Below are positions 3,917 to 30,011 of a DNA stretch of 38,986 bases, piece by piece. Source of the stretch: Chloroflexota bacterium (GTDB lineage: Bacteria; Chloroflexota; Limnocylindria; Limnocylindrales; CSP1-4); assembly GCA_025454515.1 (NCBI GenBank), contig JALOOH010000002.1:1-38986 (forward strand), given 5' to 3'. Numbering within the stretch: the stretch's first letter is position 1; each line of letters begins with the position of its first letter. The notes under the pieces are model-generated. The model searched no databases and had not been told where the DNA came from. It was given only the letters and a program-made list of their open reading frames with translations. The translations under genes and the position numbers were made by a program.

Positions 3917-5380
3917 ATGCTTGTGGGGACGCTCGTGAAGACCGAGATCGACGTGCAGCCCATGTCGGCGGGAGCGCCGGCCGCCGGCCCGGCCTGCCTC
4001 GAGGTGCTGGCGCCGGCCGACGGCTCCCTCGTCGGGACGATCGACGTCACGGCGCCGGAGGAGATCCCCGCCCTCGTGGCGACCGCGCGCGCCGGCCTCG
4101 CCTCGTGGCGGCGCGTCCCGCTCGGCGCACGTGCGGCGATGATCGAGGCCGCCGCCGCCGCCCTGTCGCCGCGGGCGGACGAGCTCGGCCACCTGCTGGC
4201 GCGCGAGAGCGGGAAGATCCTTGCCCAGGCCACCTTCGAGGTGCGCGGCGCCATCGGGCTGATGCGCGGCAACGGCGAGCACGCGCGCGGGCTCGAGGGC
4301 CGCCTCATCCCCACGGCGTCGTGGCCGGGGAACGAGCGCGACCTGGCCTGGGAGGAGCGCGTCCCGCTCGGCGTCGTCGCCGCGATCGTGCCCTTCAACT
4401 TCCCTGTCGAGCTCGCCGTGGAGAAGGCGGCGGCGGCCCTCGTCATGGGGAACACCGTCATCCTCAAGCCGCCGGGCGAGGACCCCCTCGCGATCCTCGA
4501 GGTGGTCGCCGCGCTGCACGCAGCCGGCGTCCCGCGCGACGCGCTCCTCGTCGCGGCCGGACCCGGGGTCGGCGCGGCGCTGGCGGCGGCGGAGGGCATC
4601 GACGCGGTGAGCCTGACGGGCTCGACGCGCGCGGGCATCTCGGTCGCGTCATCGGGCGCTCCGTACCTGCGCCGCCTCCACCTGGAGCTCGGCGGGAACG
4701 ACGCCCTCGTGGTCCTCGACGACGCCGACCTCGACTTCGCCGTCTCGGAAGCCATCCGCGGCCGACTCATGATGAACGGCCAGACGTGCGCGTCGAACAA
4801 GCGGATCATCCTGCACCGCGCGATCGCCGAGCGGTTCCGTGACGCCCTCGTCGAGCGCGTCGCGGCCATCCGCGTCGGCGATCCCGTGGACCCGGAGACC
4901 GAGATGGGCCCGCTCATCGACGCCGACGCCGCCGCGACCGTCGCGGGACAGGCCCGCCGTGCCGTCGAGGAAGGTGCACGTCTCGTCCTCGGCGACCTGA
5001 CGCCGCGTGGCGCGTTCCTCGGGCCGCACGTCCTCGCGGACGTGCCGCCTTCCGCGGGGGTCGCCCGCGACGACGAGGTGTTCGGGCCCGTCTTCACGCT
5101 CGTGACCGTCGACGACGACGACGACGCGGTCGAGGTCGCGAACGCATCCATGTACGGCCTCATGGGATCCGTCTTCAGCGCTGACGTGGCGCGGGCGCTC
5201 GCGGTGGCCGATCGCCTGGAGACCGGGGGCGTCGTGGTGAACGGCACCGGCAACTACCGGCCGCCGTTCATCCCGTTCGGGGGCGTCAAGATGAGCGGCT
5301 ACGGCCGCGAAGGGCTCGGGTACACGCTCGAGGAGATGAGCCAGCTTCGGTTCACGGTGATCCGTCGCCTGCGGCGCTGA
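3917..5380 (+). CDS. NAD(P)-dependent aldehyde dehydrogenase (semialdehyde type)
   Basis: A full-length (487 aa) ALDH-superfamily enzyme oxidising an aldehyde to an acid. Visible motifs are VPFNFPVEL, the nucleotide-binding VILKPPGEDP and SLTGSTRAG, catalytic Glu257 in HLELGGND, nucleophile Cys291 in GQTCASNKR, DDEVFGPVF and the C-terminal IPFGGVKMSGYGREG. The last motif and the overall layout suit succinate-semialdehyde, lactaldehyde or salicylaldehyde-type dehydrogenases; I cannot separate these. The cofactor motif reads KPPGED where KPSE is usual. The ATG at 3917 has no clear ribosome site; GTG at 3935 (preceded by GGGGAC) or ATG at 3962 could be the true start, costing only N-terminal residues. 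It has its own promoter and begins the catabolic island; the importer operon starts 88 bases downstream. Confidence 0.88.
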   Translation: MLVGTLVKTEIDVQPMSAGAPAAGPACLEVLAPADGSLVGTIDVTAPEEIPALVATARAGLASWRRVPLGARAAMIEAAAAALSPRADELGHLLARESGKILAQATFEVRGAIGLMRGNGEHARGLEGRLIPTASWPGNERDLAWEERVPLGVVAAIVPFNFPVELAVEKAAAALVMGNTVILKPPGEDPLAILEVVAALHAAGVPRDALLVAAGPGVGAALAAAEGIDAVSLTGSTRAGISVASSGAPYLRRLHLELGGNDALVVLDDADLDFAVSEAIRGRLMMNGQTCASNKRIILHRAIAERFRDALVERVAAIRVGDPVDPETEMGPLIDADAAATVAGQARRAVEEGARLVLGDLTPRGAFLGPHVLADVPPSAGVARDDEVFGPVFTLVTVDDDDDAVEVANASMYGLMGSVFSADVARALAVADRLETGGVVVNGTGNYRPPFIPFGGVKMSGYGREGLGYTLEEMSQLRFTVIRRLRR

Positions 5381-6619: not shown

Positions 6620-7408
6620 ATGGGGTCGGCGAAGCTCGAGGCCCGCGGTCTCGGCAAGCGCTTCAAGACCCGCGGCCAGGTGGTCGATGCCCTTCTGGGC
6701 GTCGACCTCAGCCTGGGGGACCGCGAGTTCGTGAGCGTCATCGGTCCGAGCGGCTGCGGGAAGTCGACGCTGTTCAACATCTTCGCGGGCCTCGAGACGC
6801 CGACCTCCGGCGACGTCCTTCTCGACGGCAGGACGACCGTGGGAGCCGACCTGCTGGGCCGCGTGGGATACATGCCCCAGCAGGATCTGCTCATGCCGTG
6901 GCGGAACATCCTCGACAACACGATCCTCGGTCTCGAGGTCGCCGGCGTGTCGAAGAGGGTGGCGCGCGAGCGCGCGCTCGACCTCTTCCCGCTCTTCGGG
7001 CTGTCGGGGTTCGAGAAGCGCTACCCCGACGACCTCTCGGGCGGCATGCGCCAGCGTGCCGCCCTCCTCCGGACGTTCCTCGCCGGCCGCGACGTCATCC
7101 TCCTTGACGAGCCGTTCGGCGCGCTCGATTCGCTGACCCGCGCCGGCATGCAGCAGTGGCTGCTCCGGATCTGGGAGGAGCACCGGAAGACGATCCTCTT
7201 CGTCACCCACGACGTCGACGAGGCGCTCTACCTCTCCGACCGCGTGTACGCGATGTCGAAGCGGCCGGGGCGGGTGACCCAGATCCTCGAGGTGGACATC
7301 CCGCGGCCCCGGGCATACGACGTCATCACCTCGGAGCCGTTCATCGAGATGAAGCAGGTCCTCCTCGAGCAGCTCCGGCTCGCGCACGGACCGGGGAAGG
7401 CGGCATGA
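6620..7408 (+). CDS. ABC transporter ATP-binding protein (SsuB/TauB/ThiZ class)
   Basis: A 262-aa cytoplasmic ATPase that powers the importer formed with its two neighbours. All motifs are intact: Walker A GPSGCGKST, Q-loop YMPQQDLLMPW, signature LSGGMRQRA, Walker B VILLDEPFGALD and switch His in FVTHDVDEAL. The PWRN sequence after the Q-loop and the LDEPFGALD box are typical of the nitrate/sulfonate/taurine/pyrimidine-precursor branch. The ATG at 6620 is two bases after the preceding stop. The stop overlaps the permease start (ATGA), pointing to coupled translation. No odd residues seen. Confidence 0.94.
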   Translation: MGSAKLEARGLGKRFKTRGQVVDALLGVDLSLGDREFVSVIGPSGCGKSTLFNIFAGLETPTSGDVLLDGRTTVGADLLGRVGYMPQQDLLMPWRNILDNTILGLEVAGVSKRVARERALDLFPLFGLSGFEKRYPDDLSGGMRQRAALLRTFLAGRDVILLDEPFGALDSLTRAGMQQWLLRIWEEHRKTILFVTHDVDEALYLSDRVYAMSKRPGRVTQILEVDIPRPRAYDVITSEPFIEMKQVLLEQLRLAHGPGKAA

Positions 7409-8271
7409 CCGGCACGCAGAGGGAGGCGGCCGCCCCGATCGCGAACGGCGCGGCCAGCGTCGCACCCCCGGCCGAGGACAGGCGGGACACGCGGCGGACG
7501 ATCCGGCGATGGGTGAAGGCCGTCACCCCGCCCCTCCTCTTCGCGGTCTTCGTGCTCATGCTCTGGGAGGCCCTCGTCTGGATCACCGGCATCAGCGCGC
7601 TGCTGCTGCCGGCTCCCTCGCAGATCGCCCTCTCGCTGATCGAGAACGCGGGACTCTTCGCCCGGAACGCGGTCGTGACGCTCAGCGAGATCCTCATCGG
7701 GTTCGCGCTGGGTGCGCTCGTCGGGGTCGGCCTGGGCATCCTCCTGTCCTACTCGCGGATCTTCGAGCGATCGGTCTACCCGTGGCTGGTCGCGTCCCAG
7801 ATGGTCCCGATCGTCGCCGTCGCGCCCATCCTGGTGGTCTGGTTCGGCTTCACCCTCGTCCCCAAGGTGCTCGTCGTCGCCCTGATCAGCTTCTTCCCGG
7901 TCGTCGTGAACACCGTGGACGGGCTGCAGTCGGTGGATCGGCAGATGATCGACCTCATGCGGACCCTCGGCGCGTCGCGGGTGAAGATCATGCGGGCGGT
8001 GCGCATCCCGTGGGCGATGCCGTTCGTGTTCTCGGGCCTCAAGATCGCGATGGCCCTGGCCGTCGTCGGCGCCGTCTTCGGCGAATGGGTCGGCTCCAAC
8101 GCCGGACTCGGCTACCTCATGCTCGCGTTCAACAACCAGCTCGCCACCACCGACCTCTTCGCGGCGGTCCTCGTGCTGTCCGCGATGGGCATCGCGCTCT
8201 TCTTCCTCGTCGGGGGCGTGGAGCGACTGGTGATCCCGTGGCACCACGACAAGCGACAGGGAGGACGATGA
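7405..8271 (+). CDS. ABC transporter permease (SsuC/TauC/ThiX class)
   Basis: A 288-aa inner-membrane permease with a soluble N-terminal extension of about 40 residues and roughly six hydrophobic segments (first VTPPLLFAVFVLMLWEALVW). The EAA loop that docks on the ATPase is visible as MIDLMRTLGASRVKIMRAVRIPWAMPFVF. The WVGSNAGLGYLM segment is characteristic of the nitrate/taurine/pyrimidine-precursor permeases. The start overlaps the ATPase stop and its own stop overlaps the aminotransferase start (both ATGA), so the importer and the enzyme are made from one message. Start chosen by this overlap; the open frame further upstream is antiphase shadow. Confidence 0.93.
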   Translation: MTGTQREAAAPIANGAASVAPPAEDRRDTRRTIRRWVKAVTPPLLFAVFVLMLWEALVWITGISALLLPAPSQIALSLIENAGLFARNAVVTLSEILIGFALGALVGVGLGILLSYSRIFERSVYPWLVASQMVPIVAVAPILVVWFGFTLVPKVLVVALISFFPVVVNTVDGLQSVDRQMIDLMRTLGASRVKIMRAVRIPWAMPFVFSGLKIAMALAVVGAVFGEWVGSNAGLGYLMLAFNNQLATTDLFAAVLVLSAMGIALFFLVGGVERLVIPWHHDKRQGGR

Positions 8272-10883: not shown

Positions 10884-12469
10884 GGGCGGGCCACAATGGC
10901 CTCGTCTGCGCGGCGTATCTCGGCCGCGCCGGGTTCGACGTCACCGTCCTCGAACAGGCGGACCGGCCCGGCGGCTGCGTCCTCACCGAGGAGCCCGTCC
11001 CCGGCTTCCGGATGAACATCGGCGCGATCGAGATCGGCGGGATCGTGGAGAGCGGCATCGTGGACGAGCTCGACCTCCGCTCGCTGGGTCTCCGTCTGGC
11101 GGCCCAGCCGGAGATCGCGGTCATCCACACGCCCGGGCCCGCACTCGCCTTCCACCGCTCGCTCGACGCGACCACCGCGCACCTCGCCGACGCGCTCTCT
11201 CCCGCGGCGGCCGCAGAGTGGGCCCGGTTCACGGCCCTCGCCGACGGGGTCTGGGGTCTCTTCTCGCTCGTGGATGACGTCCCGCCCCCCTCGTTCGGCG
11301 AGCTCGCCAGGATGGCCCAGGACGCGTACGGGGACCGCGGCAGTCGCATCTTCGAGGCGGTCCTCTCGCCGGCCGATTCCGTCCTCCGGGCGAACCTCGC
11401 CGATGCCGACCTGCGCGCGGCGGCCGCGGCCTTCGGGGCGCACGGGGAGATCCCTCCGTGGCTCCCGGGGAGCGGCGTCTTCGCCTTCCTGCTCCCGGGC
11501 GGGCACGGCGGCGTCGGCGCACGACCGGTCGGCGGCTCCGGCGCCCTGGTGGACGCGCTCGTGATGTCCATCGAGCGCGCCGGAGGTCGGGTCCGGTGCG
11601 GCGCGCCCGTCGCGCGGGTGCGGCTCTCCGAGGTCGGCGTCGCAGGCGTGACACTGGCCTCGGGCGAGGAGGTCGACGCGGACGTCGTGGTGTCCACCAT
11701 CGACCTCCGGCGCCTCGGTGCCATGCTCCCGGCGGACGAACGCACCGCGGCCCTGCGCCTGGGTGGAGAGCGCACGCACGGCGGCCTGTGCAACGTCGCG
11801 GAGCTGAAGGTGGACCTGGCGCTCGACGGCGAGACGGTCCTCGCGCGTGAGGCGCCGTGCGACCCGGGCGCGCTCCGGATGCTCGTCCCCGACCTCGACG
11901 TCGGCGCGGCCTTCCGTGCCATCGTGGACGGCAGGATCCCGGACCCGATGCCGGTGATGTTCTCCATCCCGTCCGCGTCGGACCGCACGATGGCGCCGAC
12001 CGGACGGTCCGTCGGGTGGGTCTCGGCGTTCGTGCCGGCGGTGCGCGCCGACGGCAGGACGTGGCCAGAGGGCAACGACGACGCCGTGCGTGCCGCGCTG
12101 GCCACGGTCGAGCGGTTCGCGCCCGGGACGACCGCGCGGATCCTCGGGACGGTCGTGACCGGGCCGGCCGAGTGGGAGGCGCGCACCGGGAACCCGGGCG
12201 GCAACCCGAACCACATCGACCTGACCCTGGACCAGATGCTCGGCTCGCGACCCGCCGCCGGACTCGCCCGCTACGAGACGCCGGTCCGCGGCCTGTTCCT
12301 CTCGGGCGCCGGCACCCATCCGGGTGGGGGCGTCACCGGTCGCCCGGGTCGGAACGCCGCCGTCGCGGTGACGGGGGCCGGCGGCCGCGGTGTGCGGCGG
12401 ATGCGGGCGCCCGGGCTGCGCCTCGCCGATGCAGCGCGCGGGTATCTCCGCATGCGGGGGGCCTTGTGA
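10862..12469 (+). CDS. FAD/NAD(P)-binding oxidoreductase, phytoene desaturase/PYROXD2-like
   Basis: A 535-aa flavoprotein of the CrtI/PYROXD2 group (COG1233-like). It opens with the dinucleotide motif VVGAGHNGLVCAAYL, then VLEQADRPGGCVLTEE, and ends with the FAD-binding LFLSGAGTHPGGGVTGRPGRNAA. The middle has the VDADVVVSTIDLRRL return to the FAD domain. Members desaturate carotenoids or oxidise poorly known substrates. Here no carotenoid genes are nearby and the gene sits between an amidohydrolase and an O-methyltransferase, so oxidation of the imported compound or a product is more likely. GTG at 10862 is chosen because it directly precedes the FAD motif and overlaps the upstream stop; its stop shares a base with the next ATG (TGATG). 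Confidence 0.87.
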   Translation: MPRAAVVGAGHNGLVCAAYLGRAGFDVTVLEQADRPGGCVLTEEPVPGFRMNIGAIEIGGIVESGIVDELDLRSLGLRLAAQPEIAVIHTPGPALAFHRSLDATTAHLADALSPAAAAEWARFTALADGVWGLFSLVDDVPPPSFGELARMAQDAYGDRGSRIFEAVLSPADSVLRANLADADLRAAAAAFGAHGEIPPWLPGSGVFAFLLPGGHGGVGARPVGGSGALVDALVMSIERAGGRVRCGAPVARVRLSEVGVAGVTLASGEEVDADVVVSTIDLRRLGAMLPADERTAALRLGGERTHGGLCNVAELKVDLALDGETVLAREAPCDPGALRMLVPDLDVGAAFRAIVDGRIPDPMPVMFSIPSASDRTMAPTGRSVGWVSAFVPAVRADGRTWPEGNDDAVRAALATVERFAPGTTARILGTVVTGPAEWEARTGNPGGNPNHIDLTLDQMLGSRPAAGLARYETPVRGLFLSGAGTHPGGGVTGRPGRNAAVAVTGAGGRGVRRMRAPGLRLADAARGYLRMRGAL

Positions 12470-13458
12470 TGGGATGGGGAGAGCTGTACGGGACGCTGAC
12501 CGGGTACCAGGGGGCGGCCGCGATCATGGCCGCCGACCGGTCGGGCCTCATCGCCGCCCTCGCCGGGGACGGGGGCTCGCTCGACGAGCTCGCCGCGCGG
12601 ACGGGGGCGTCGGCGCGCGGGGTCGACGCGCTCGTCCGCGCTCTCGTGGCCATGGGCATCGTGGAGAGCATCGGCTCGGCCTATCGGCTCGGCCCGACGG
12701 GTGCGCCTCTGGCTGCCACCGGGCCCGACGGCCTGGACCGCCTCATCCGCAAGGAGGCGGTCTTCTACGCGCTGTGGGCGCGGCTCGACGGCGCGGTCCG
12801 CACGGGCGACGCACTGCTCGCGCCGTTCGCCGAGCGCGCCCGCACCGAGCCGGCGGCAGCCGAGGCCTTCCTCCTCGCCCTCAACGATCTCGCGGGTCGC
12901 GTCGCTCCGGACCTGGTGCCGGCGGCGCGCCTCGAGGGCGCACGGTCGCTCGTGGACGTCGGCGGCGGCGGCGGCGCCTATGCCCTCGCGTTCTCCGGGG
13001 CCGACCCGGGACTCGACGTGACGATCGTGGAGCAGCCCTCCGTGGTGCCGCTGACCGAGCGGGCGCTCGCGGCTGCGGGCGCGGCCGGCACGCGCATCCG
13101 CGTCGTGGCGGGAGACGCCACGCGCCGGGGCCTCGGGCTCGATGAGCGCTTCGACGCCGCGCTGGTCTCCCACCTGCTCCATGACATGGACCCGGAGGCG
13201 GCGCGTGCCGCCGTCCGCGGCGCGGCTTCGGTTCTCGGACCGGGCGGCGTCCTCCTCGTCCACGACGTGTTCCGCGAGCAGGGGGACACGGATCCGGTCG
13301 TCGCCCTGTTCGACGTGATGATGCTCGTGGAGAACCAGGGCGGTCGCACGCACTCCCTCGCCGACCTCCGCGGATGGCTCGTCGAGGCGGGCATGGGCGA
13401 GCCAGAGGTGCACTCGCTCGGCTTCACGACGCTGCTGCGGGTCGAGGCGGCAGGGTAG
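12469..13458 (+). CDS. SAM-dependent O-methyltransferase (plant-type, winged-helix N-terminus)
   Basis: A 329-aa class I methyltransferase. Residues about 10-90 form the dimerisation winged helix seen in plant caffeate-type and bacterial polyketide O-methyltransferases (GSLDELAARTGAS, VRALVAMGIVE). The SAM site is LVDVGGGGGAYAL, followed by TIVEQPSVV, VVAGDATRRG and the SHLLHDMDPEAA segment, where His-Asp is the usual catalytic neighbourhood. GGRTHSLADLRGWLVEAGM is the conserved C-terminal lobe. It is the last gene of the plus operon and shares a base with the preceding stop. The acceptor is unknown; its presence in a catabolic-looking operon is unusual. A hairpin follows the stop. Confidence 0.9.
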   Translation: MGWGELYGTLTGYQGAAAIMAADRSGLIAALAGDGGSLDELAARTGASARGVDALVRALVAMGIVESIGSAYRLGPTGAPLAATGPDGLDRLIRKEAVFYALWARLDGAVRTGDALLAPFAERARTEPAAAEAFLLALNDLAGRVAPDLVPAARLEGARSLVDVGGGGGAYALAFSGADPGLDVTIVEQPSVVPLTERALAAAGAAGTRIRVVAGDATRRGLGLDERFDAALVSHLLHDMDPEAARAAVRGAASVLGPGGVLLVHDVFREQGDTDPVVALFDVMMLVENQGGRTHSLADLRGWLVEAGMGEPEVHSLGFTTLLRVEAAG

Positions 13459-13476: not shown

Positions 13477-14154
13477 TCACGACCCGTAGGTGGCGACGAG
13501 CCACGTCCAGAGGCGTGCCGTCTCCTTCTCGTACCAGCGGTCCCGGCGCGCGAGGTCTCCCGGCGTCAACGGGATGCCGGCGCCGCCCGACCGCTCCGCG
13601 ACCTCGCACCGATCCTCCAGGCACCACGCCCGGGCAGCCGCCTCCGGTAGATCGTGGCCGACGACGAGGCCACCGTTGCCGCGGAGGAGGATCGCGGGCG
13701 CCGCCCCCAGCGTCGCGGCCACGCCCGCCCCCGCCTCCGCGTCCGCGACGAGATCCGGATCGGGCCACATCGCGACCGGCTCCACCATGCCCCCGAACCC
13801 GTGGAGCAGGGGAGGCGGCTCCGGCCGTGACGCCCACGCCGCGGCGGCCCGGCCGTGGATCCGACAGATCGCCGCGACGTCCGGCCGCGCCGCGTACACG
13901 GCCGCGTGCATCGGAGCCTCGAGCGGGACGCGTGAGCGGTCCCCGTCGCGTGGCGAGCCGTCGGCCGCGAGCGACCGGACGTCCGGGGCGTCAAGGGCGC
14001 CGAGCGGCGGCACCACGGGCGTGAGGAGGAAGCCGTCGTCGGCCCGCGCGCTCACGTGGCCGAACGCATGCACGAGGCCGGCGCGGGCCAGGATCCGCGC
14101 GACGAGGACGACGCCGGTCCGGGCGTCGGCTCCGACCCGGTCCGCCGAGCTCAT
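13477..14154 (-). CDS. Class II aldolase/adducin-fold protein with altered metal site
   Basis: A 225-aa protein of the fuculose-phosphate-aldolase/adducin fold. Recognisable features are GHVSAR (residues 32-37), PLEAPMHAAVYAARPDV with Glu79 and His83, and the LLRGNGGLVVG strand. In active class II aldolases zinc is held by two His in an H-x-H motif and a third His in a GHG/NHG motif. Here these read Arg98-Ile-His100 and G-N-G, so two of the three ligand His appear replaced. It may bind a different metal, use another chemistry, or be a non-catalytic partner. The ATG overlaps the stop of the DUF1989 gene (ATGA), so it is the last gene of a three-gene minus-strand operon. Fold assignment is good; activity is unclear. 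Confidence 0.8.
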   Translation of the reverse strand: MSSADRVGADARTGVVLVARILARAGLVHAFGHVSARADDGFLLTPVVPPLGALDAPDVRSLAADGSPRDGDRSRVPLEAPMHAAVYAARPDVAAICRIHGRAAAAWASRPEPPPLLHGFGGMVEPVAMWPDPDLVADAEAGAGVAATLGAAPAILLRGNGGLVVGHDLPEAAARAWCLEDRCEVAERSGGAGIPLTPGDLARRDRWYEKETARLWTWLVATYGS

Positions 14155-14819
14155 ACCGCCGGCCGAAGAACGCGGAACGCCATCTCCGTGATGACGTACC
14201 CGTTGCACGCGGTGAGGTCCTGCGGACACGAGCTGGCCACGACCCCGAGGTCGTCGAGCACGTCGAACTCGATGTAGCTCCCCGCTGGGTGCGGCGGCTC
14301 GACCGTCAGGATGGCCCCGTCGGGCTGGAGCTGGTTGTTCATGAACACGTTCCACGCAAGCTCGGCGCGCGGTTCCCAGGTCTCGCCCGCGAGCTCGAGG
14401 CCCTCGCGGATGTTGCCGAGGCACGACCGGTGATCGGTGAGCCCGTAGTCGCGCTCGTAGCGCTCCGGGTCGCAGCACGGCACGATCAGGTCGTGACGGC
14501 CGACGGTGTCGCGACGGATCCGCAGGATGGGCCGGCGGTGGTTCGAGAAGATCTCCTCCCCCTCGCGCGGGACGAGATGCGTAAGACACGAGACCGTGTG
14601 CCCCGGCGAGAGGTACTCGTCGGGGTCTGCCAGGCGCCAGGCCATGACGTCCGTCACCTGCTGGCCGCGGACGTCCACGATCTGGAGGATCTCGCCGGCG
14701 GAGACCCGGACGGACCGCCCGTGACCGGCCGGGATGAGGATCTCCCTGCCCGCGACGTAACCGTCCGGGATCGGGGTCGCCGGGATCGTCGCCGGCCCCT
14801 GCGGCGCTGGCTTCGTCAT
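14151..14819 (-). CDS. DUF1989 (urea carboxylase-associated) family protein
   Basis: A 222-aa protein of the DUF1989 family, annotated elsewhere as urea-carboxylase-associated protein or wrongly as aminomethyltransferase. Typical sequences are GREILIPAGHGRSVRVSAGEILQIVDVRGQQVTDVMAW near the start, CLTHLVPREGEEIFSNHRRPIL, the Cys-rich LIVPCCDPERYERDYG...HRSCLGN that probably holds a metal, and WNVFMNNQ. Relatives occur with urea or guanidine carboxylases and with amide-utilising genes; no carboxylase is in this window. The start overlaps the stop of the enamidase-like gene and its stop overlaps the aldolase-like gene. Its role is unknown; the company suggests handling of an amide or carbamoylated intermediate. 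Confidence 0.85.
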   Translation of the reverse strand: MTKPAPQGPATIPATPIPDGYVAGREILIPAGHGRSVRVSAGEILQIVDVRGQQVTDVMAWRLADPDEYLSPGHTVSCLTHLVPREGEEIFSNHRRPILRIRRDTVGRHDLIVPCCDPERYERDYGLTDHRSCLGNIREGLELAGETWEPRAELAWNVFMNNQLQPDGAILTVEPPHPAGSYIEFDVLDDLGVVASSCPQDLTACNGYVITEMAFRVLRPAV

Positions 14820-16021
14820 CGTGCCCCTCCTGACTGGACCGTGGCCTCCCGCGCGGGCGCGGGCGTGTTGCGGCTCTTGAGCGCCCGGACCTGGCCGTCG
14901 ATGACGACGCCGCACATCCCCGGGATGTCCCCGTTCTCGATCGCCGCGAGGGGGTCGGAGCGCGTCCCGCCGAGGGGCTCCTGGACGAGGACGAGGTCGG
15001 CGGGCCGTCCGGGCTCGAGGATGCCCTCCCTCACACGGAGGACGCGCGCCGCGTTCCCCGTCGCCATGGCGAGGACGTCCGTCGCGGGGAGGCCCCCGAG
15101 CGACGACAGCTCGCAGACGGTCTTGATGACGCCCATCGGCATCACGCCGGTCCCGGACGGCGTGTCCGTCCCGAGGATGACGCGAGCGAGCGCATCGTTC
15201 GCCGCGGCGGCCCGAAGGACGACGAGCGCCGACCGCAGGTTGCCGGCCTGGACGATCTGGAGCGCCATCGACGAGCTGGCGACCAGGCGGCCGACGTCCT
15301 CGTCCGGCATGCTCGAGGTCCCGCCGTTGACGTGTCCGGCGATGTCGGGCTGCATGGTGAGGAGGTGATCGACCGTGATGGGCTTGGAGCCCGAGATCGA
15401 CGCGCCGCCCGAGTGGGACATCACCACGAACCCGGCGGCGCGTGCCCACGCGACCTGCGGTGCGGCATCTGCCGGGTCCGTGAACGCGCCGAACCCGACC
15501 TTCATGAACCGGACGCCCTGCGCGGCGAGCCATGCGAAGTCCTCTTCGCGGAGGACCGGCTCGCAGATCACGGACCCGCCCCGCACCTTCACGCCTCCCG
15601 GCCGGAAGCCGGTGAAGGCGCGCTGCGCCGCGACCGCGAGCGCCTTCACGCCCTCGCGGTCGGACGGCCGGCCCGGCAGGTGGACCTCCGACGCGGACAT
15701 CGCCTGGGTCACGCCGCCGTGCATGTAACTCTCGATGAACCCGATGGTGTTCTGGCGGGGCGTCCAGTCGCCGAAGACGACGTGGAGGTGCGTGTCGAAG
15801 AGTCCGGGGATCGCGACGGCTCCATGCGCGTCCACGACGACGTCCGCTGGCCCCGCGGCGCCGCCGATCGAGGCGATCACGCCCGCCTCGGCCCGGATCG
15901 TCTCGGCCGCGACCACGGGCTCGCCGAGACGCCCCGTGACGATGCCCCTCAGGTTGCGGATCTCGATCGACCCGTCCGCCGGTCCGAACGCCCCGGGCTG
16001 GAATGTCTGATCCCAGGTCAT
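14816..16021 (-). CDS. Amidohydrolase resembling enamidase
   Basis: A 401-aa amidohydrolase-superfamily enzyme. Metal ligands are His78/His80 in LFDTHLH, Lys174 in FMKVGFGAF as candidate bridging residue, His203 (MSHSGG), His230 (GHVNGG) and Asp286 (GTDTPSGTG). From memory, the runs DTH.H...D..PRQ, HLPGRPSD, GVKV.GG, ATGN.A and ALKSRNTPAP match enamidase of the anaerobic nicotinate pathway, which opens the ring of 6-oxo-tetrahydronicotinate and releases ammonia. I infer a similar hydrolysis of a cyclic enamide or lactam; true nicotinate use is unproven because no nicotinate hydroxylase is seen. First gene of a minus-strand operon, with GGGAGGG upstream of the ATG and a promoter that faces the opposite operon. 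Confidence 0.82.
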   Translation of the reverse strand: MTWDQTFQPGAFGPADGSIEIRNLRGIVTGRLGEPVVAAETIRAEAGVIASIGGAAGPADVVVDAHGAVAIPGLFDTHLHVVFGDWTPRQNTIGFIESYMHGGVTQAMSASEVHLPGRPSDREGVKALAVAAQRAFTGFRPGGVKVRGGSVICEPVLREEDFAWLAAQGVRFMKVGFGAFTDPADAAPQVAWARAAGFVVMSHSGGASISGSKPITVDHLLTMQPDIAGHVNGGTSSMPDEDVGRLVASSSMALQIVQAGNLRSALVVLRAAAANDALARVILGTDTPSGTGVMPMGVIKTVCELSSLGGLPATDVLAMATGNAARVLRVREGILEPGRPADLVLVQEPLGGTRSDPLAAIENGDIPGMCGVVIDGQVRALKSRNTPAPAREATVQSGGAR

Positions 16022-16154: not shown

Positions 16155-17696
16155 GTGAGCAGCGAAGTCGATCTCGTCCTCAAGGGCGGGCGCGTCGTGA
16201 CCGGCGACGGGGTCTTCGAGGCAGGGGTCGCGATCCGGGACGGGAAGATCGTGGCGGTCGCCGCGGACGAGCTCCTTCCCCCCGCGAAGAAGGTCATCGA
16301 CGTGAAGGGCAACCACATCCTGCCCGGGATCGTCGACTCGGAGGCCCACCCGGGCTGCTACGTCCCGTTCGACTACGACATCCGGACGGAGAGCAAGGCC
16401 GCCGCGTGCGCCGGAGTGACCACGTGGGGGATCCAGGCGCCGTCCACCCGGCTCGGGACCAAGCCCTTCAAGGAGTTCGTCCAGGCGTCGGACGTCGTGC
16501 CGTTCTCGCAGTCGTTCGGCGCGGCGAAGGAGATCCTCGACTCGATCTCGGCGGTGGATGCATTCCTGACGTTCATGGTCGAGACCGATGCGCAGGCCGA
16601 GGAGATCCCGCTCTACTGCGAGGAGTACGGGGTCACCTCGTACAAGCTGTACATGCAGGCGCGACGGATCCCGGCCGAGGACCACAACTGGCCGAGCCGT
16701 CGTGCAGGCCTGGGCGTCGGGATCGACGACGGCGTGCTCTACCGCGTCTTCGAGCAGGTCGCGCGTTACGGCGCCCCCGCCATCTGCTCGATCCACCCCG
16801 AGAACTGGGAGATCGCCCGCGTCTTCGAGGAGCGCGCTCGCGCGTCCGGGCGGACCGACCTCGGGGCGTGGACGGACCGCTCGCCGCACATGCTCGAGGC
16901 GCAGCACGTCCGCGCGTACGCGTACATCGCCGAGAAGCTCGGCACCCGCATGTACATCCAGCACGCGACGACGCCGGCCACCTTCGCGGAGATCCGTGAG
17001 GCGCGCTCGCGCGGCGTCGAGATGTACGCCCAGACGGGTCCCGCCTGGCTCGGGTTCACGCCGAACGATGGCTGGCGGATCAACGTGCCGCTCCGCTGGG
17101 AGGACGCGCAGGAGGAGCTCTGGAAGGCGCTCGCCCGCGGCGACGTCGACGTCGTCGGTTCCGACCACGTGGTGGCCTGGGAGCCCGCCGACCGCGAGTC
17201 GATGTACAGCGCGAACATCTGGGATTGCCGGACCGGGTTCTCGCGCGTCGAGACGTTCCTGCCGGTGATGCTCACCAAGGGCGTCCACGAAGGGCGGATC
17301 AACCTGCAGCGGCTCGTCCAGGTCAGCTGCGAGAACCCCGCGAAGATCTACGGCCTGTTCCCGCAGAAGGGCGCGATCGCCGTCGGCTCGGATGCGGATC
17401 TCGTGGTCGTCGACCTGTCGCGCGAGGTGAAGGTGGGCAAGGAGCACCTGAACACGCGCTCCGGCTGGTCGATCATGGAGGGGCGGACCTACCACGGCTG
17501 GCCCGTCATGACCGTCCTCCGCGGCCAGGTGACGGCCGAGTGGGCGGATGACTCCCCGGGGATGCGTCCGGTCGGCGAGCCGATCGGCAGGTACCTCCCT
17601 CGCTCGGTCCGGCCGGACGTCCCCGCGGCGCCCACCGACCGCCTCGTGCGCACGGGCCCGAACGCCACCCTCGAGGGCATCTCCGCCGGCGTGTAG
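16155..17696 (+). CDS. Dihydropyrimidinase/hydantoinase-like amidohydrolase with altered first metal motif
   Basis: A 513-aa protein of the dihydropyrimidinase, hydantoinase, allantoinase and dihydroorotase group, which hydrolyse cyclic amides. It keeps the candidate carboxylated Lys164 (TSYKLYM), His214 (SIHPENW), His270 (YIQHATTP) and Asp337 (VGSDHV), as well as the C-terminal GAIAVGSDADLVVVD. The first motif, normally D-x-H-x-H after the LPG turn, reads Asp61-Ser-Glu63-Ala-His65: Glu replaces the first metal His. It may still bind metal through Glu, or act differently. GTG 16155 is chosen because AAGGAGGA lies five bases before it and the protein then begins at the usual beta-sandwich (VDLVLKGGRVV). 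First gene of an operon with an amidase-like and a DUF5591-like gene. Ring-opening of a hydantoin, dihydropyrimidine or related lactam is inferred. Confidence 0.85.
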   Translation: MSSEVDLVLKGGRVVTGDGVFEAGVAIRDGKIVAVAADELLPPAKKVIDVKGNHILPGIVDSEAHPGCYVPFDYDIRTESKAAACAGVTTWGIQAPSTRLGTKPFKEFVQASDVVPFSQSFGAAKEILDSISAVDAFLTFMVETDAQAEEIPLYCEEYGVTSYKLYMQARRIPAEDHNWPSRRAGLGVGIDDGVLYRVFEQVARYGAPAICSIHPENWEIARVFEERARASGRTDLGAWTDRSPHMLEAQHVRAYAYIAEKLGTRMYIQHATTPATFAEIREARSRGVEMYAQTGPAWLGFTPNDGWRINVPLRWEDAQEELWKALARGDVDVVGSDHVVAWEPADRESMYSANIWDCRTGFSRVETFLPVMLTKGVHEGRINLQRLVQVSCENPAKIYGLFPQKGAIAVGSDADLVVVDLSREVKVGKEHLNTRSGWSIMEGRTYHGWPVMTVLRGQVTAEWADDSPGMRPVGEPIGRYLPRSVRPDVPAAPTDRLVRTGPNATLEGISAGV

Positions 17697-17739
17697 GCCG
17701 AGGCGAGCCACCCCCCCACACACACGCGGAGACAGTGAG

Positions 17740-18501
17740 ATGCCCATCTGGGACGACGTCCTGTCCGAGACCGACCGCAGGGTGTTCGAGGCCGCCGGCT
17801 GGGGCCGGACCGCGGGACCCGGCGACCGCCCGGTCCTCATGGTCATCGACGTCAACTACAACTTCGTCGGCGACCGGCCCGAGCCGATCCTCGAGTCGAT
17901 CAAGCGCTGGCGGTTCTCCTGCGGCGAGCGGGGCTGGCAGGGGGTGGCGGCGACCCGGCGGATCCTCGACGAGGCCCGCCGCCTGCGGTTGCCGGTGATC
18001 TACACGACCAACCCGCGCCGACCGGACGGCTTCGACCTCGGTGTCTGGAACCTGAAGAACTTCCGGGCCGAGGAGGAGGTGGACGTCCAGGGCCACATGG
18101 GCAACGAGATCGTCGCGGAGGTCGCGCCACTGCCGGGGGACCTCTTCATCGAGAAGAAGAAGCCATCGGCGTTCTTCGGGACGCCGCTGGTGAGCTACCT
18201 GACGGCGCTGAAAGCGGACACGATCATCCTCACGGGGACCACCACGAGCGGCTGCGTCAGGGCGAGCGCGGTGGACGCGATCTCCGACAACTTCCGCGTC
18301 GTCATCCCCGAGCAGGCCGTGTGGGACCGCGGCGAGCTCAGCCACAAGGTCAACCTCTTCGACCTCCAGCAGAAGTACTGCGATGTCGTCGAGCTGGATG
18401 ACCTGCTCCGCTACCTCGGCGGGCTGGAGGCCGGCCTCTTCGACGACGTCTGGCCGCCGGCGCGCGAGGCTGCGGCGGCCGATGGGGCGCTCGCCCGATG
18501 A
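17740..18501 (+). CDS. Isochorismatase-family cysteine hydrolase (N-carbamoylsarcosine amidase-like)
   Basis: A 253-aa cysteine amidohydrolase. The triad is visible as Asp37 (VLMVIDVNYNF), a Lys in FIEKKKPSAFFGT (most likely Lys139) and Cys172 in LTGTTTSGCVRASAVDA. The TTSGCVRA signature and SAFFGT are typical of N-carbamoylsarcosine amidase and related carbamoyl or amide hydrolases (ureidoacrylate and maleamate amidases are cousins). Acting after a hydantoinase-type enzyme, it would remove the carbamoyl group of an N-carbamoyl amino acid, giving the free amine, CO2 and ammonia; this order is inference. A weak GGAG lies about 9 bases before the ATG. Its stop overlaps the next start (ATGA). 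N-terminal 30 residues are an extension with no known domain. Confidence 0.87.
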   Translation: MPIWDDVLSETDRRVFEAAGWGRTAGPGDRPVLMVIDVNYNFVGDRPEPILESIKRWRFSCGERGWQGVAATRRILDEARRLRLPVIYTTNPRRPDGFDLGVWNLKNFRAEEEVDVQGHMGNEIVAEVAPLPGDLFIEKKKPSAFFGTPLVSYLTALKADTIILTGTTTSGCVRASAVDAISDNFRVVIPEQAVWDRGELSHKVNLFDLQQKYCDVVELDDLLRYLGGLEAGLFDDVWPPAREAAAADGALAR

Positions 18502-19523
18502 GCGACATCGAGACCCGCGACGGACGGTTGGCGGAATCCCGCGTCAAGATCGTCCCCCCGTTCCTCCTCGACGATTCGATGCGGTTCTACAGCCCCCAGG
18601 ACAACCTCGATGCGCTCGAGCACCCTCGCGTCCGCCCGTTCTACGAGCACGTTCGCGACGCCTATGTCCCGGACCTGCCGCCGGGTCGACACGTCGCGCT
18701 GCTGATCCCGTGCACGAAGACGAAGCCGTACCCGTTGAGCATCGAGCACCAGCGCATCAACGGCGCGCTCCTCGCCGCCGGGTACCGGCCGGTGCCGGGC
18801 GCACCCGAGACCGCCCCCGACCCGGCGTGGCTCGAGAGGCTCGAGGCGGGCGCCGACCCCGAGGTCCTGCGCGTGACGCCGCTCGTCCGCGGCGATGCCG
18901 TGGTGCACCGCTACGTCGTGTCCGAGCCGATGGGCCTCGTGCCGTACGAGTTCGTGTACCGGTGGCGCGGCGAGCAGTCGCCCGCGAGCTCGTACGACGA
19001 TCCCGGGCTGTTCGAGCATCGTGGCACCGCCGTCTCTCCCTGGCGTCCGGACAACACTGGCACCCGGGCCGCCGACGGGACCTGGCGGTGGGGGGACAAC
19101 GAGAAGGCGGCGTACGTCGACGTCCACAACAGGCTGACCGCCATCATGGCGGCGGAGATCTCGCGGCTCCGGCCCATGTACGAGAGGATCATCGCGTGGG
19201 TCGCGCCCGGGCTCACCCACCGGAGCTTCATGATGGCCGCCGCCGAACGCGGTCCCGAGGGAGTCCCGGCGTCGAGGGTCGTGGCCGGCCGGCGTCTCCC
19301 GTTCGTAAGCGTGAACGACCTCACGGGAGGTGCGGTCGAGGTCCACCCGACGCGACGCGAGGCGGACGGAGCCCTCGACCGACTCCAGGCGCACCTCGAG
19401 CGCGACGATCCGGCGACGACGCGGAAGTCCGCCCAGGCCGTCTACGCGCGGGGTGGCGGCGGGGCCACGCCGCTCGCCCTCCAGGAGATGCTCGAGGTGC
19501 TGACCGGCCTGCTGGATCGATGA
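18498..19523 (+). CDS. Protein resembling the DUF5591 (archaeosine-synthase-type) domain
   Basis: A 341-aa protein of uncertain function. Residues 43-110 (HPRVRPFYEHVRDAYVP, then VALLIPCTKTKPYPLSIEHQ around Cys72) and YVVSEPMGLVPYEFVY further on resemble the DUF5591 domain of archaeal ArcS/TgtA2, where LLPCS..KPYS.S..H and S.PLG.VP.E are conserved. ArcS itself works on queuosine-family bases in tRNA. No tRNA-guanine transglycosylase, PUA or radical-SAM partner is seen here. The C-terminal half (ISRLRPMYERIIAWV..., PFVSVNDLTGG) is not recognised. It is translationally coupled (ATGA) to the isochorismatase-family gene, so a role in the same catabolic route is likely. The resemblance is judged by eye and needs a profile search. 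Confidence 0.6.
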   Translation: MSDIETRDGRLAESRVKIVPPFLLDDSMRFYSPQDNLDALEHPRVRPFYEHVRDAYVPDLPPGRHVALLIPCTKTKPYPLSIEHQRINGALLAAGYRPVPGAPETAPDPAWLERLEAGADPEVLRVTPLVRGDAVVHRYVVSEPMGLVPYEFVYRWRGEQSPASSYDDPGLFEHRGTAVSPWRPDNTGTRAADGTWRWGDNEKAAYVDVHNRLTAIMAAEISRLRPMYERIIAWVAPGLTHRSFMMAAAERGPEGVPASRVVAGRRLPFVSVNDLTGGAVEVHPTRREADGALDRLQAHLERDDPATTRKSAQAVYARGGGGATPLALQEMLEVLTGLLDR

Positions 19524-20549: not shown

Positions 20550-20566
20550 GCGGGTCAGGCGCCCGC
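20550..20566. terminator. Hairpin between convergent genes
   Basis: GCGGG (20550-20554), seven-base loop, CCCGC (20562-20566). It lies between the GntR stop and the stop of the opposing amidohydrolase. No U-tract; weak candidate. Confidence 0.3.
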
Positions 20567-21937
20567 GGGTCGCGCGACCGTCTCCGGCGTGAACAGCAGC
20601 GGGTGATTTCGCAGTCCTGCCTCTGAGACCAGCTCGGCAGCGAGCTCGCGCGCCTCGTCGATCACGGCGTCGAGGTCGATGCGCGTGGGCCGTCCGGCGA
20701 CCAGGACCCGCTCGCCCTGGATCCAGACGTCCGAGACCGCCCGGCTCGTCGTGCAGTAGGCGACGGCCTGGTACGGGTCGTGGGTGACCGCCAGCGCCGG
20801 CGTCCGGCCGTCGAGCAGGACGACGTCGGCCTCCTTGCCCGGCTCGAGCGAGCCCGTGACGTCATGGAGACCGAGCGCCCGCGCGCCGTCGATCGTGGCC
20901 ATCCGCAGGACCTCTGGCGCCGTCATCGCGGTCGGGTCGAGCCGATCGACCTTCTGGAGGAGGGCGGCGACCTTCACCGCCTCGAGCATGTCCTGACCAT
21001 CGTTGCTCCCCGGGCCATCGGTGCCGATGCCGACAGGGATGCCGGCGGCCTGCAGGCGGCGGACCGGGCAGACTCCCGAGGCGAGGATCATGTTCGCGAT
21101 CGGGTTGTGCGCGACGCGCACATCGTGGGCCGCGAGGATCTCGACGTCGGCGTCGCTCAGCCAGATGCAGTGGGCAGCGAGGACCTCGACGTCGAACAGG
21201 CCCTCACGTGCGGCGTAGCCGATCGTCGTGAGCCCGTGGAGCTGCCGGGACGCGACCACCTCCTCGCGCACCTCGTGGAAGTGCGTGTGCACGCGGCAGC
21301 CGCTCTCGTGCGCGCGCCGCACCGATGCCGCGAAGAGCGCGTCGCTCTGCGCGAGGACCGTCGCGAGGCCCATGCGGAAGCGGCAGCGCCGCGAGCCCGC
21401 CGCCGCAGCCTCGAGCGCGTCGTGCTCCGCGAAGATCTCCTCGACCGAGCGCGGATCGTTGCGATCCTGTGCGCCGAAGGCCACCTCGCCGCGGAGCCCA
21501 AGACGCTCGAGGCCGTCGACGACCCCGGGCGTGACCGGCGCCTCCGGGTGTGGCGAGCACACGAACAGGTCGTTGACGGTGGTGACGCCCGACGCGAGCA
21601 TCTCGGCGCCCCGCAGGAGGGTTCCGACCTCCGCCATGCGCCGGGTGAGATGCGGCCCGACGGGGGCGACGAGGTGCTGGATCCACTCGAACAGCGTCAG
21701 GCTCTCGCCCATCCCGGTCACGAGGGCCTCGGAGAAGTGCCCGTGGGCGTTCACGAGGCCCGGAAGCACCACCCCGGTCCCGTCGCCGACGACCTCGGCC
21801 TCCGGGTGCGCCGACATCAGCCTCTCCCACGGCCCGACCTCGGCGATCGTCCCGCCGTCGACGCGCACGGCGGCATCCCGGAGGGCACCCGCCGGCCCGG
21901 AGGTGAGGACGGATCGGCCACGGATCAGGGTCGTCAC
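20555..21937 (-). CDS. Amidohydrolase, ATZ/TRZ (deaminase) family, second copy
   Basis: A 460-aa TIM-barrel hydrolase, paralogous to the plus-strand gene at 9513-10883. Metal ligands are in NAHGHFSEAL, HTHFHEV, AAHCIWL and GIGTDGPGSND. Both copies share FEW, GVTTVND, ANMILASGVCPV, VGIGTDG, LLQKV.RLDP and GSLE.GK.AD. The HGH in place of the HTH seen at 9513 keeps both His. GTG at 21937 is chosen because the beta-sandwich (TTLIRGRSVLTSGP) starts there and GGAG lies upstream; the long open frame above it is antisense to the lipoprotein gene. It stands alone on the minus strand, divergent from the BMP-type importer, which suggests it acts on the compound that importer brings in. Deamination of a nucleobase-like ring is the inferred reaction. 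Confidence 0.9.
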   Translation of the reverse strand: MTTLIRGRSVLTSGPAGALRDAAVRVDGGTIAEVGPWERLMSAHPEAEVVGDGTGVVLPGLVNAHGHFSEALVTGMGESLTLFEWIQHLVAPVGPHLTRRMAEVGTLLRGAEMLASGVTTVNDLFVCSPHPEAPVTPGVVDGLERLGLRGEVAFGAQDRNDPRSVEEIFAEHDALEAAAAGSRRCRFRMGLATVLAQSDALFAASVRRAHESGCRVHTHFHEVREEVVASRQLHGLTTIGYAAREGLFDVEVLAAHCIWLSDADVEILAAHDVRVAHNPIANMILASGVCPVRRLQAAGIPVGIGTDGPGSNDGQDMLEAVKVAALLQKVDRLDPTAMTAPEVLRMATIDGARALGLHDVTGSLEPGKEADVVLLDGRTPALAVTHDPYQAVAYCTTSRAVSDVWIQGERVLVAGRPTRIDLDAVIDEARELAAELVSEAGLRNHPLLFTPETVARPAGA

Positions 21938-21976
21938 TAGGAGACTCCACTGCGCTGGCTCGACGCAGGTGATCGC

Positions 21977-22025
21977 TTGACACGATGGTACATCATGCCC
22001 GCAGGGTCTTGTGAAAGACAGGAGA
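21977..22025. promoter_or_regulatory. Divergent control region with GTCTT-GTGA-AAGAC palindrome
   Basis: GTCTT-GTGA-AAGAC (22006-22019) is a perfect 5-4-5 palindrome, and AGACA occurs at 22016-22020 and 22023-22027. On the minus strand CTGTCT (22021-22016), 18 bases, CATGAT (21997-21992) could be the promoter of the amidohydrolase, the same arrangement as at 16080-16109. A TTGACA lies at 21977-21982 and GATG-GTA-CATC at 21984-21994, but no convincing plus-strand -10 follows the TTGACA. Confidence 0.4.
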
Positions 22026-22051
22026 CAGGGACGCAGGGAGGAGAGGTCCCG

Positions 22052-23098
22052 ATGCGACACGGATCCGTCAGGCTGGCCGCGGTGGCCGCCATCTCGATCG
22101 CGCTGCTCGCGGCCTGCAGCGGGAGCGGCGCGACAAACGCGCCGGCGGAGAGCCAGGCACCTGCCGAGAGCGCGGCGCCGAGCGCCGCCGCGCTGAAGGT
22201 CGCGCTGGTGCTGCCCGGCCCGGCGTCGGACAAGGGATTCAACCAGTCCGCCTACGAGGCTCTCGCGGAGTTGGAGTCGAAGTTCGGCGCGGAGACGGCC
22301 TACACCGAGAGCGTCGCACCGAACGAGTTCGAGACCGCCTACCGCGACTACGCAGGCAAGGGCTTCAACGTCATCATCGGCCAGGGCTTCGAGTTCGGGG
22401 ACATCGCCGCCAAGGTCGCCCCTGACTACCCGGACGTGAAGTTCCTCGTGACCAACAACAACGCTCTGAGCGGCCCGAACGCCGAAGGGCTGCAGCCGAA
22501 GTCGCAGGACGCCGCATACCTCGCCGGTGTCGTCGCGGGCATGGCGACCAAGAGCGGCAAGGTCGGCGGCATCGCCGGAATGCAGTTCCCGGTGATCGTC
22601 GCGCAGATGGAGGCCTACAAGCTCGGTGTCCTGTCCGTCCGCCCGGACGCGCAGGTGACGCTCACGTACCTCGGGACATTCGACGACGTCGCCAAGGCGA
22701 AGGAGACGACCCAGGCGATGATCGATTCGGGGATCGACGTCATCTACCACATCGCCGACGCGGCAGGCGTGGGCGTGATCCAGGCCGCCGACGCCGGCAA
22801 GATCCTCGTCATCGGCTGGGGCAAGGACCAGAGCGAACTCGCGCCGAACGCGGTCGTCACCTCGCAGATCGTCGACCAGAAGGAGATGATCGTCGAAGCC
22901 ATCGGGCGGATCGTGAACGGCCAGTTCGCTGGCGAGCCGCAGTTCTTCGGCCTCGACACGCCGGTCCTCGGGCTCGCCCCCATCGGTGCGGTGGACACCG
23001 ACACCGCCGCCAAGATCCAGGCGAAGGTGGACGAGGTCGAGGCTGCCATCCTGAGCGGGACGACCGAGGTCCCGTTCATCCCCGAGCCCTCCAACTAG
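22052..23098 (+). CDS. BMP/PnrA-type ABC transporter substrate-binding lipoprotein
   Basis: A 348-aa solute-binding lipoprotein of the basic membrane protein (Bmp/PnrA/Med) family, whose studied members bind purine nucleosides; other members bind different small molecules. Residues 1-21 are the signal with lipobox LLAAC, followed by an Ala/Pro/Ser linker. The mature start KVALVLPGPASDKGFNQSAYEAL and later NVIIGQGFEFGD, DAAYLAGVVAG, GGIAGMQFPVI and GVGVIQAA match the family. ATG 22052 has AGGGAGGAGAGG just upstream; starts farther left are in frame but would add residues before a good signal peptide. The ATPase and two permeases follow. Together with the divergent deaminase-like gene, the ligand is probably a nucleoside or nitrogen heterocycle (inference). 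Confidence 0.92.
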   Translation: MRHGSVRLAAVAAISIALLAACSGSGATNAPAESQAPAESAAPSAAALKVALVLPGPASDKGFNQSAYEALAELESKFGAETAYTESVAPNEFETAYRDYAGKGFNVIIGQGFEFGDIAAKVAPDYPDVKFLVTNNNALSGPNAEGLQPKSQDAAYLAGVVAGMATKSGKVGGIAGMQFPVIVAQMEAYKLGVLSVRPDAQVTLTYLGTFDDVAKAKETTQAMIDSGIDVIYHIADAAGVGVIQAADAGKILVIGWGKDQSELAPNAVVTSQIVDQKEMIVEAIGRIVNGQFAGEPQFFGLDTPVLGLAPIGAVDTDTAAKIQAKVDEVEAAILSGTTEVPFIPEPSN

Positions 23099-29438: not shown

Positions 29439-30011
29439 TCAGCGGAGTCCGTCCTCGCCCTTCGCGTCCTCGATGGTCAGGCCCCCGAGGCGGAAGTTCG
29501 GGCGGCCGCGGCTCGAGCCGGCGAGGACGACGACGACCTCGTCCGGCTCGGGCGCATCCGCGATGCGGACGGTGATCGTGTCGTAGTGCGAGCGCACGAA
29601 CAGCGCGTCCTTGTAGGCGAGCGGGACGTCGAGTTCGGCGCCCATCGCGCCGCGCTTGCCGGTGGAGGAGATCCAGGCCTTCCCGCCGCCGACCGCCTCG
29701 CGGAGCCGGTCCGCGAGGACCGACGTGAGGAAGGCGTGCGTGTGCTCGACCTCTCCGCTCGTGCCGACGAGTGCGGCCTTGCCGTATCCCTGCACCGGGC
29801 CGCCCATCGCCTCGACGAGCATGCGGCCGAGCGTCACGCCGAGCTCGCGGCTCGGCTCGACGATCTCCGACAGGTCCTCGGAGTAGCGGCCCGCGTACGG
29901 GTTGCGCACGACGGCCGCGACCGCGACCTTGCGCAGCGGCGGGTCGACATCGATCCCGGTCTCCTTCACCACGTCCTCGACGACCGTGACGAACTTGCGG
30001 ACCTCGATCAT
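29439..30011 (-). CDS. AA_synth (DUF1185) family protein
   Basis: A 190-aa protein of the family called amino acid synthesis (DUF1185). Family sequences visible are VVRNPYAGRYSEDLS, GKAALVGTSGEVEHTHAFLT, AWISSTGKRGAMGAELDVPLAYKDALFVRSHYD and ADAPEPDEVVV-like tail (here IADAPEPDEVVV). The true reaction is not known to me; the family name rests on weak evidence. GGAGGAG lies about 7 bases before the ATG. It leads a two-gene minus-strand unit with the semialdehyde dehydrogenase, so it may act on an amino acid or amide intermediate of the same island. Confidence 0.85.
   Translation of the reverse strand: MIEVRKFVTVVEDVVKETGIDVDPPLRKVAVAAVVRNPYAGRYSEDLSEIVEPSRELGVTLGRMLVEAMGGPVQGYGKAALVGTSGEVEHTHAFLTSVLADRLREAVGGGKAWISSTGKRGAMGAELDVPLAYKDALFVRSHYDTITVRIADAPEPDEVVVVLAGSSRGRPNFRLGGLTIEDAKGEDGLR

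What the first reader, a model, noticed from the sequence alone, without database searches (positions are those of the whole stretch)
13477..16021. Three-gene enamidase-like / DUF1989 / aldolase-fold operon
All junctions overlap by ATGA, so the three products are strongly coupled. DUF1989 proteins are usually linked to urea or guanidine carboxylase; here there is none, and the partner is a ring-opening enamidase-like enzyme. It is a chance to learn what DUF1989 does.
Basis: partly seen in the sequence, partly recalled or inferred. Interest (0 to 1): 0.6.

Follow-up and report, generated by a model that had tools for sequence, protein, structure and literature searches.

The report
Conserved ring-breakdown cluster with DUF1989
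Three overlapping genes, a true enamidase relative, a metal-binding DUF1989 protein and an altered aldolase-fold protein, are one stretch of a larger gene cluster kept in at least 19 bacterial genomes that probably imports and takes apart an unidentified nitrogen-ring compound, which gives DUF1989 a new and testable setting.

Summary
On the minus strand, Ena-like amidohydrolase (16021-14816), DUF1989 (14819-14151) and a class II aldolase-fold protein (14154-13477) overlap by ATGA at both junctions. The stated refutation (trio not conserved) fails: DUF1989 orthologs lie in the same setting in 19 loci from the window's genus and from actinobacteria. Ena directly precedes DUF1989 in 16 of 19; AldII directly follows in 17 of 18. 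The trio is only part of a unit: hydantoinase-like, isochorismatase-type amidase, AA_synth, aldehyde dehydrogenase, SsnA-type deaminase, ThiY-like ABC importer, CrtO-like oxidoreductase, methyltransferase-fold protein. Two genomes keep DUF1989-AldII without a local Ena, so Ena is a common, not obligatory, partner. No tested genome has urea/guanidine carboxylase. DUF1989 is not functionally blank: carboxyguanidine deiminase and TMAO demethylase are members. The window protein is neither: its clade is separate (100/100), with a complete Asp/Cys3/His/Asp site like TMAO demethylase, which deiminase subunits have lost. AldII has lost two of three canonical metal histidines in all 16 orthologs. Best reading: a catabolic cluster for an N-heterocycle, possibly an aminopyrimidine, in which DUF1989 cleaves a C-N bond after ring opening. 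Substrate and reaction are inferred, not shown.

The parts
14816..16021 (-). Enamidase (Ena)-like amidohydrolase, 401 aa, metal-ligand motifs kept (HxH, K, H, H, D)
   Evidence: Pfam PF01979; PDB 2VUN E 3e-100; conserved motifs in 15 orthologs; tree
14151..14819 (-). DUF1989 protein (PF09347), 222 aa, complete metal site D57/C116/H130/C133/C198/D201
   Evidence: AlphaFold pLDDT 90, best PDB match 3siy E 5.6e-18
13477..14154 (-). Class II aldolase/adducin-fold protein, 225 aa, altered metal site (R98-x-H100, N160 instead of HxH...H), E79 kept
   Evidence: Pfam PF00596; nearest solved fold 2z7b, TM 0.86; 16/16 orthologs share the altered site
16155..17696 (+). Hydantoinase/dihydropyrimidinase-like amidohydrolase, divergent from the trio; first His of HxH is Glu in all 17 orthologs
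17737..18501 (+). Isochorismatase-fold amidase of the N-carbamoylsarcosine/maleamate amidase type
18498..19523 (+). DUF5591-containing protein, also in the cluster in L004 and L080
19661..20548 (+). GntR-type regulator, also in the cluster in L077 and L080
9513..10883 (+). SsnA/TRZ-ATZ-type amidohydrolase (deaminase-like)
   Evidence: in cluster in L003-L008, L057, L058, L080
8259..9509 (+). Class III aminotransferase, also in cluster of L080
5469..6617 (+). ABC substrate-binding protein, NMT1/THI5/ThiY type
   Evidence: best PDB 3ix1 ThiY E 9e-31; LD..P...H motif conserved in 11 orthologs
6695..7408 (+). ABC transporter ATPase
7399..8271 (+). ABC transporter permease
3917..5380 (+). Aldehyde dehydrogenase of the cluster
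10892..12469 (+). CrtO/CrtI-like FAD oxidoreductase of the cluster
12448..13458 (+). O-methyltransferase-fold protein of the cluster
29439..30011 (-). AA_synth (PF06684/DUF1185) protein; elsewhere directly upstream of Ena or DUF1989

Best explanation
The trio is part of a conserved catabolic cluster that imports and degrades a nitrogen heterocycle, possibly an aminopyrimidine. Proposed order, inferred: a ThiY-like ABC transporter takes up the compound; an SsnA-type amidohydrolase removes an amino group; oxidoreductases trim the side chain; hydantoinase-like and Ena-type amidohydrolases open the ring; the isochorismatase-type amidase and DUF1989 remove the remaining nitrogen; the AldII-fold protein and aldehyde dehydrogenase process the carbon skeleton. 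DUF1989 is most likely an active metal enzyme (Zn on three Cys, possibly a second metal at His/Asp) that cleaves a C-N bond (amidine, enamine or ureido type) of a ring-opened intermediate made by the amidohydrolases. Shown: gene content, conservation, homology, retained or lost metal residues. Inferred: pathway order, substrate class, DUF1989 reaction.
For: Same gene set in 19 loci. Ena similarity 339 bits; a Sulfitobacter Ena sits in a nicotinate cluster with 6-hydroxynicotinate reductase and two AA_synth, so Ena plus AA_synth is a ring-opening module used elsewhere. Transporter: best solved relatives ThiY and THI5. Amidase: N-carbamoylsarcosine amidohydrolase type. AldII: nearest fold is the vitamin B6-pathway pyridine-dicarboxylate decarboxylase 2z7b. 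DUF1989: all six metal-site residues of TMAO demethylase kept in 18/18 orthologs, confident model matching 3siy. Known members act on C-N bonds in small nitrogen compounds, and other DUF1989 genes lie with amidases, agmatinases and nucleobase-type transporters.
Against: No biochemical data. Sequence cannot order the steps. The hydantoinase-like enzyme has Glu for the first HxH His in all orthologs and AldII lacks two of three canonical metal His, so their textbook reactions may not apply. Ena relatives can do other chemistry: KpiC, 28% identical to enamidase, is a dioxygenase (PMC7356986). No riboswitch names the substrate.
Confidence: 0.55

Rival explanations
1. The DUF1989 protein is a carboxyguanidine deiminase-type enzyme or half-enzyme and the cluster serves guanidine use.
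For: Same Pfam family; TIGR03424 matches at 80 bits; G333 carries a second, divergent DUF1989 gene beside AldII, reminiscent of the CgdAB pair.
Against: No urea/guanidine carboxylase in nine cluster-bearing genomes; score far below the 284.7-bit cut-off; UAAP1/UAAP2 form their own group away from the window clade; UAAP2 has lost His130 and Asp201 equivalents and UAAP1 the Cys, while the window clade keeps all; no guanidine riboswitch in the six stretches scanned.
Confidence: 0.05
2. The DUF1989 protein is an N-oxide or N-methyl demethylase like TMAO demethylase, releasing formaldehyde from an N-methylated ring product.
For: Best NCBIfam score is to Tdm (108 bits); metal-site residues identical to Tdm.
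Against: No GcvT domain, no N-terminal extra domain, no methylamine or formaldehyde genes in the cluster; Tdm is a separate clade.
Confidence: 0.12
3. Substrate is nicotinate or another pyridine, the trio performing the Ena step and downstream decarboxylation of a 2-formyl diacid.
For: Ena homology; AA_synth-Ena pairing in a nicotinate cluster; AldII nearest a pyridine-dicarboxylate decarboxylase.
Against: No nicotinate dehydrogenase or 6-hydroxynicotinate reductase in the clusters; hydantoinase-like and carbamoyl-type amidase genes do not fit; window Ena lies outside the Sulfitobacter nicotinate Ena group.
Confidence: 0.15
4. DUF1989 and/or AldII are non-catalytic companions, for example a complex scaffold or sensor.
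For: AldII has lost two of three canonical metal His in all orthologs, as I recall adducin-type members have; the deiminase subunit CgdA is a degenerate DUF1989 partner.
Against: DUF1989 keeps the full site in 18/18; AldII keeps E79, H83, H100, H118 invariant, so a changed active site is as likely as none.
Confidence: 0.13

Closest known systems
TMAO demethylase Tdm (DUF1989 + GcvT; PDB 9q59)
   Same: DUF1989 domain with Asp, three Cys, His, Asp site all kept; best NCBIfam score
   Different: Window protein is a lone 222-aa DUF1989 without GcvT; separate clade; no methylamine genes nearby
Carboxyguanidine deiminase CgdAB (UAAP1/UAAP2)
   Same: Same Pfam family; known reaction is C-N hydrolysis
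   Different: Single gene in most clusters, no carboxylase, complete metal site, separate clade
Enamidase Ena of Eubacterium barkeri (PDB 2VUN)
   Same: Full-length homolog of the window amidohydrolase, metal motifs kept
   Different: No nicotinate fermentation genes; set beside hydantoinase-like, amidase and ThiY-like importer genes
3-hydroxy-2-methylpyridine-4,5-dicarboxylate decarboxylase (PDB 2z7b)
   Same: Nearest solved fold to the AldII protein, TM 0.86
   Different: 22% identity; HTH and the H of RHG in 2z7b are RxH and N in the window clade
Hydantoin/creatinine-type routes (hydantoinase + N-carbamoylsarcosine amidase)
   Same: Homologous ring-opening and carbamoyl-amidase genes side by side
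   Different: Variant metal motif in the hydantoinase; extra Ena, AA_synth, DUF1989, AldII

Membership tests
DUF1989 (PF09347) | Pfam gathering score and fold | tested here: met
   144.7 bits against cut-off 27; model matches 3siy, TM 0.82
Carboxyguanidine deiminase CgdAB | TIGR03424/TIGR03425 equivalog score | tested here: not met
   80.4 vs 284.7 and 55.6 vs 205.95 bits
Carboxyguanidine deiminase CgdAB | Falls in the CgdA/CgdB clade | tested here: not met
   UAAP group and window clade are separate, each one side of a branch in 100% of bootstrap trees
Carboxyguanidine deiminase CgdAB | Linked guanidine carboxylase | tested here: not met
   No match over cut-off in nine genomes
TMAO demethylase Tdm | DUF1989-GcvT fusion and equivalog score | tested here: not met
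   107.8 vs 1100 bits, no GcvT domain
TMAO demethylase Tdm | Metal-site residues D198, C263, H276, C279, C343, D346 | tested here: met
   Equivalents D57, C116, H130, C133, C198, D201
Enamidase Ena | Full-length homology to 2VUN with metal motifs | tested here: met
Enamidase Ena | Hydrolyses 6-oxo-1,4,5,6-tetrahydronicotinate | not testable with these tools
   needs an enzyme assay
Class II aldolase/decarboxylase | Metal triad HxH...H | tested here: not met
   RxH...N in 16/16 orthologs
Class II aldolase/adducin fold | Fold | tested here: met
   PF00596 96.7 bits; foldseek 2z7b TM 0.86
Nicotinate pathway | Nicotinate dehydrogenase and 6-hydroxynicotinate reductase in the cluster | tested here: not met
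   Pfam of window genes and cluster gene content of relatives

The most novel reading that the evidence does not exclude
A third DUF1989 enzyme type: a stand-alone metal-dependent C-N hydrolase that deiminates the ring-opened product of an aminopyrimidine (for instance the pyrimidine half of thiamin), inside an undescribed vitamin- or nucleobase-like catabolic pathway shared between distant bacteria.
Probability: 0.22. Interest if true: 0.75.

Novelty: new variant of a known kind. Interest (0 to 1): 0.5.

Why it matters
DUF1989 activity is described for carboxyguanidine deiminase and TMAO demethylase. A monophyletic third group with an intact metal site, tied to one conserved gene cluster, gives a bounded set of substrates to test and could define a new reaction for the family. 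The cluster also ties AA_synth (PF06684), a family with solved structures but no known reaction that I could find, to enamide ring opening.

Tried and rejected
Guanidine route: rejected on missing carboxylase, clade and metal residues. Direct nicotinate route: no dehydrogenase or reductase in clusters. Riboswitch search for a substrate clue over 141 kb: only a tRNA. Literature: few papers name DUF1989 or enamidase, and no bacterial pathway for the thiamin pyrimidine turned up; the CgdAB source paper is not held. AldII homologs on plasmids: none at E 1e-12; nearest hydantoinase-like genes on plasmids are only about 34% identical. NCBIfam gave no equivalog over cut-off for any trio protein. A first batch of gene coordinates was out of frame and was redone. 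Residue numbers printed are shifted by one; those are right.

Full report
Observation. The three genes are real, on the minus strand, at 16021-14816, 14819-14151 and 14154-13477, each junction an ATGA overlap. Pfam assigns Amidohydro_1, DUF1989 and Aldolase_II. The amidohydrolase is a full-length homolog of E. barkeri enamidase (2VUN, E 3e-100; next best PDB hit E 2e-5). The window is a whole contig (C244) of a 2.76 Mb assembly in 301 contigs with one DUF1989 gene.

Conservation. A scan of genome contigs found seven Solirubrobacterales loci, and all carry the trio plus a collinear set of other window genes as far as their contigs reach. Searches of whole genomes added G058 in the same genus, six further genomes from the class of G303 and four more from its phylum. 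In total 19 loci have a DUF1989 ortholog in this setting. Ena immediately precedes DUF1989 in 16; in G339 an aldehyde dehydrogenase lies between; in G415 and G502 Ena is absent from the cluster and DUF1989 overlaps AA_synth by about 4 bases instead. Those two genomes hold an Ena elsewhere, 49-50% identical, of the Mesorhizobium/Mariluticola type, and the Ena inside the G523 cluster belongs with Thermomicrobium/Rhodococcus-type Ena. So the Ena function seems to be supplied from different sources, while DUF1989 and AldII travel together (directly adjacent in 17 of 18; separated by one gene in G523).

The larger unit. In Solirubrobacterales the order is aldehyde dehydrogenase, IclR regulator, hydantoinase-like, isochorismatase-type amidase, AA_synth, Ena, DUF1989, AldII, NMT1-type binding protein, ABC ATPase, permease, SsnA-type amidohydrolase, CrtO-like oxidoreductase, methyltransferase-fold protein. 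L004 has a DUF5591 gene where others have IclR. The window has the same genes rearranged around the divergent trio, with AA_synth 13 kb away. G523 joins nearly all window genes, including the aminotransferase, the DUF5591 gene and GntR, in one stretch. G515, 75-82% identical in Ena, hydantoinase-like and amidase, repeats the divergent layout.

What DUF1989 is. Its PDB relatives are 3oru/3siy, Tdm (9q59) and 3di4. Tdm binds Zn by C263, C279, C343, with D198, H276 and D346 close by (PMC12560246). The window protein and all 17 aligned orthologs keep the equivalents D57, C116, H130, C133, C198, D201. In the carboxyguanidine deiminase subunits sampled, UAAP2 keeps the Cys but has Met/Leu for His and Leu/Ile for Asp, and UAAP1 has lost most or all of the Cys. 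C115, E119 and E153 are invariant in the window clade; E153 was not seen outside it and C115 in one protein only (L029). The tree puts the 18 cluster proteins in one clade (100/100), apart from UAAP (100/98) and Tdm (100/100). A model from 17 sequences has mean pLDDT 90 and matches 3siy. G333 has a second, divergent DUF1989 gene next to AldII with part of the site.

What the neighbours suggest. The binding protein's best solved relative is ThiY, then 4nmy and THI5; in Solirubrobacterales 4nmy and ThiY. The ThiY-like LD-P-H motif is conserved in 11 orthologs. The amidase is nearest 4l07 and N-carbamoylsarcosine amidohydrolases and keeps Asp, Lys, Cys. The hydantoinase-like protein is nearest an L-hydantoinase but has Glu for the first HxH His in all 17. 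AldII is nearest a pyridine-dicarboxylate decarboxylase in sequence and fold but carries RxH and N in place of HxH and H. AA_synth sits beside Ena in other clusters without DUF1989, and in the same gene block as Ena in a Sulfitobacter nicotinate cluster. These point to a nitrogen-ring substrate; the ThiY relationship points to pyrimidines but does not prove it.

Mechanism. My best account is import, deamination, ring opening by hydantoinase-like and Ena enzymes, and clean-up of residual nitrogen by the amidase and DUF1989. DUF1989 acting on an amidine, enamine or ureido C-N bond is inferred from the known members' chemistry and from its intact metal site. Other DUF1989 genes lie beside amidases, polysaccharide-deacetylase-fold hydrolases and nucleobase-type transporters, or agmatinases, without carboxylase in the stretches seen, so a general role in C-N cleavage is plausible.

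Limits. Substrate, step order and the AldII reaction are not shown. The organism's name is withheld; that the window's phylum differs from that of the Solirubrobacterales is likely, because the two phylum samples shared no handles in the lists shown, but it was not proven. CgdAB and Tdm references in the tree are plasmid-borne homologs chosen by annotation, not the characterised proteins themselves.

Noticed in passing
window 16155-17696: Hydantoinase-like protein has Glu in place of the first His of the HxH metal motif, invariant in 17 orthologs.
   Followed up: partly
window 13477-14154: AldII-fold clade has lost two of three canonical metal histidines (RxH...N), invariant in 16 orthologs.
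   Followed up: partly
L057 11133-11714: Second, divergent DUF1989 gene beside AldII in G333, with part of the metal site.
   Followed up: partly
window 18498-19523: Protein with a DUF5591 match (a domain I recall from archaeosine synthase) that co-occurs with this catabolic cluster in window, L004, L035 and L080; role unknown.
   Followed up: no
window 20555-26812: A second SsnA-type amidohydrolase next to a BMP/PnrA-type ABC transporter; the same block lies beside the cluster in G058 and its transporter part in L004.
   Followed up: partly
L014 3713-12999: Sulfitobacter plasmid nicotinate cluster with 6-hydroxynicotinate reductase, two AA_synth, UPF0280 and Ena: links AA_synth to enamide ring opening.
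   Followed up: partly
L083, L084, L085, L086: Other DUF1989 genes close to polysaccharide-deacetylase-fold proteins, several also with amidases and nucleobase-type transporters: a second carboxylase-free DUF1989 context.
   Followed up: no
L096 3133-4615: DUF1989 gene next to a GntA-type N-hydroxylase gene on a Deinococcus ficus plasmid.
   Followed up: no
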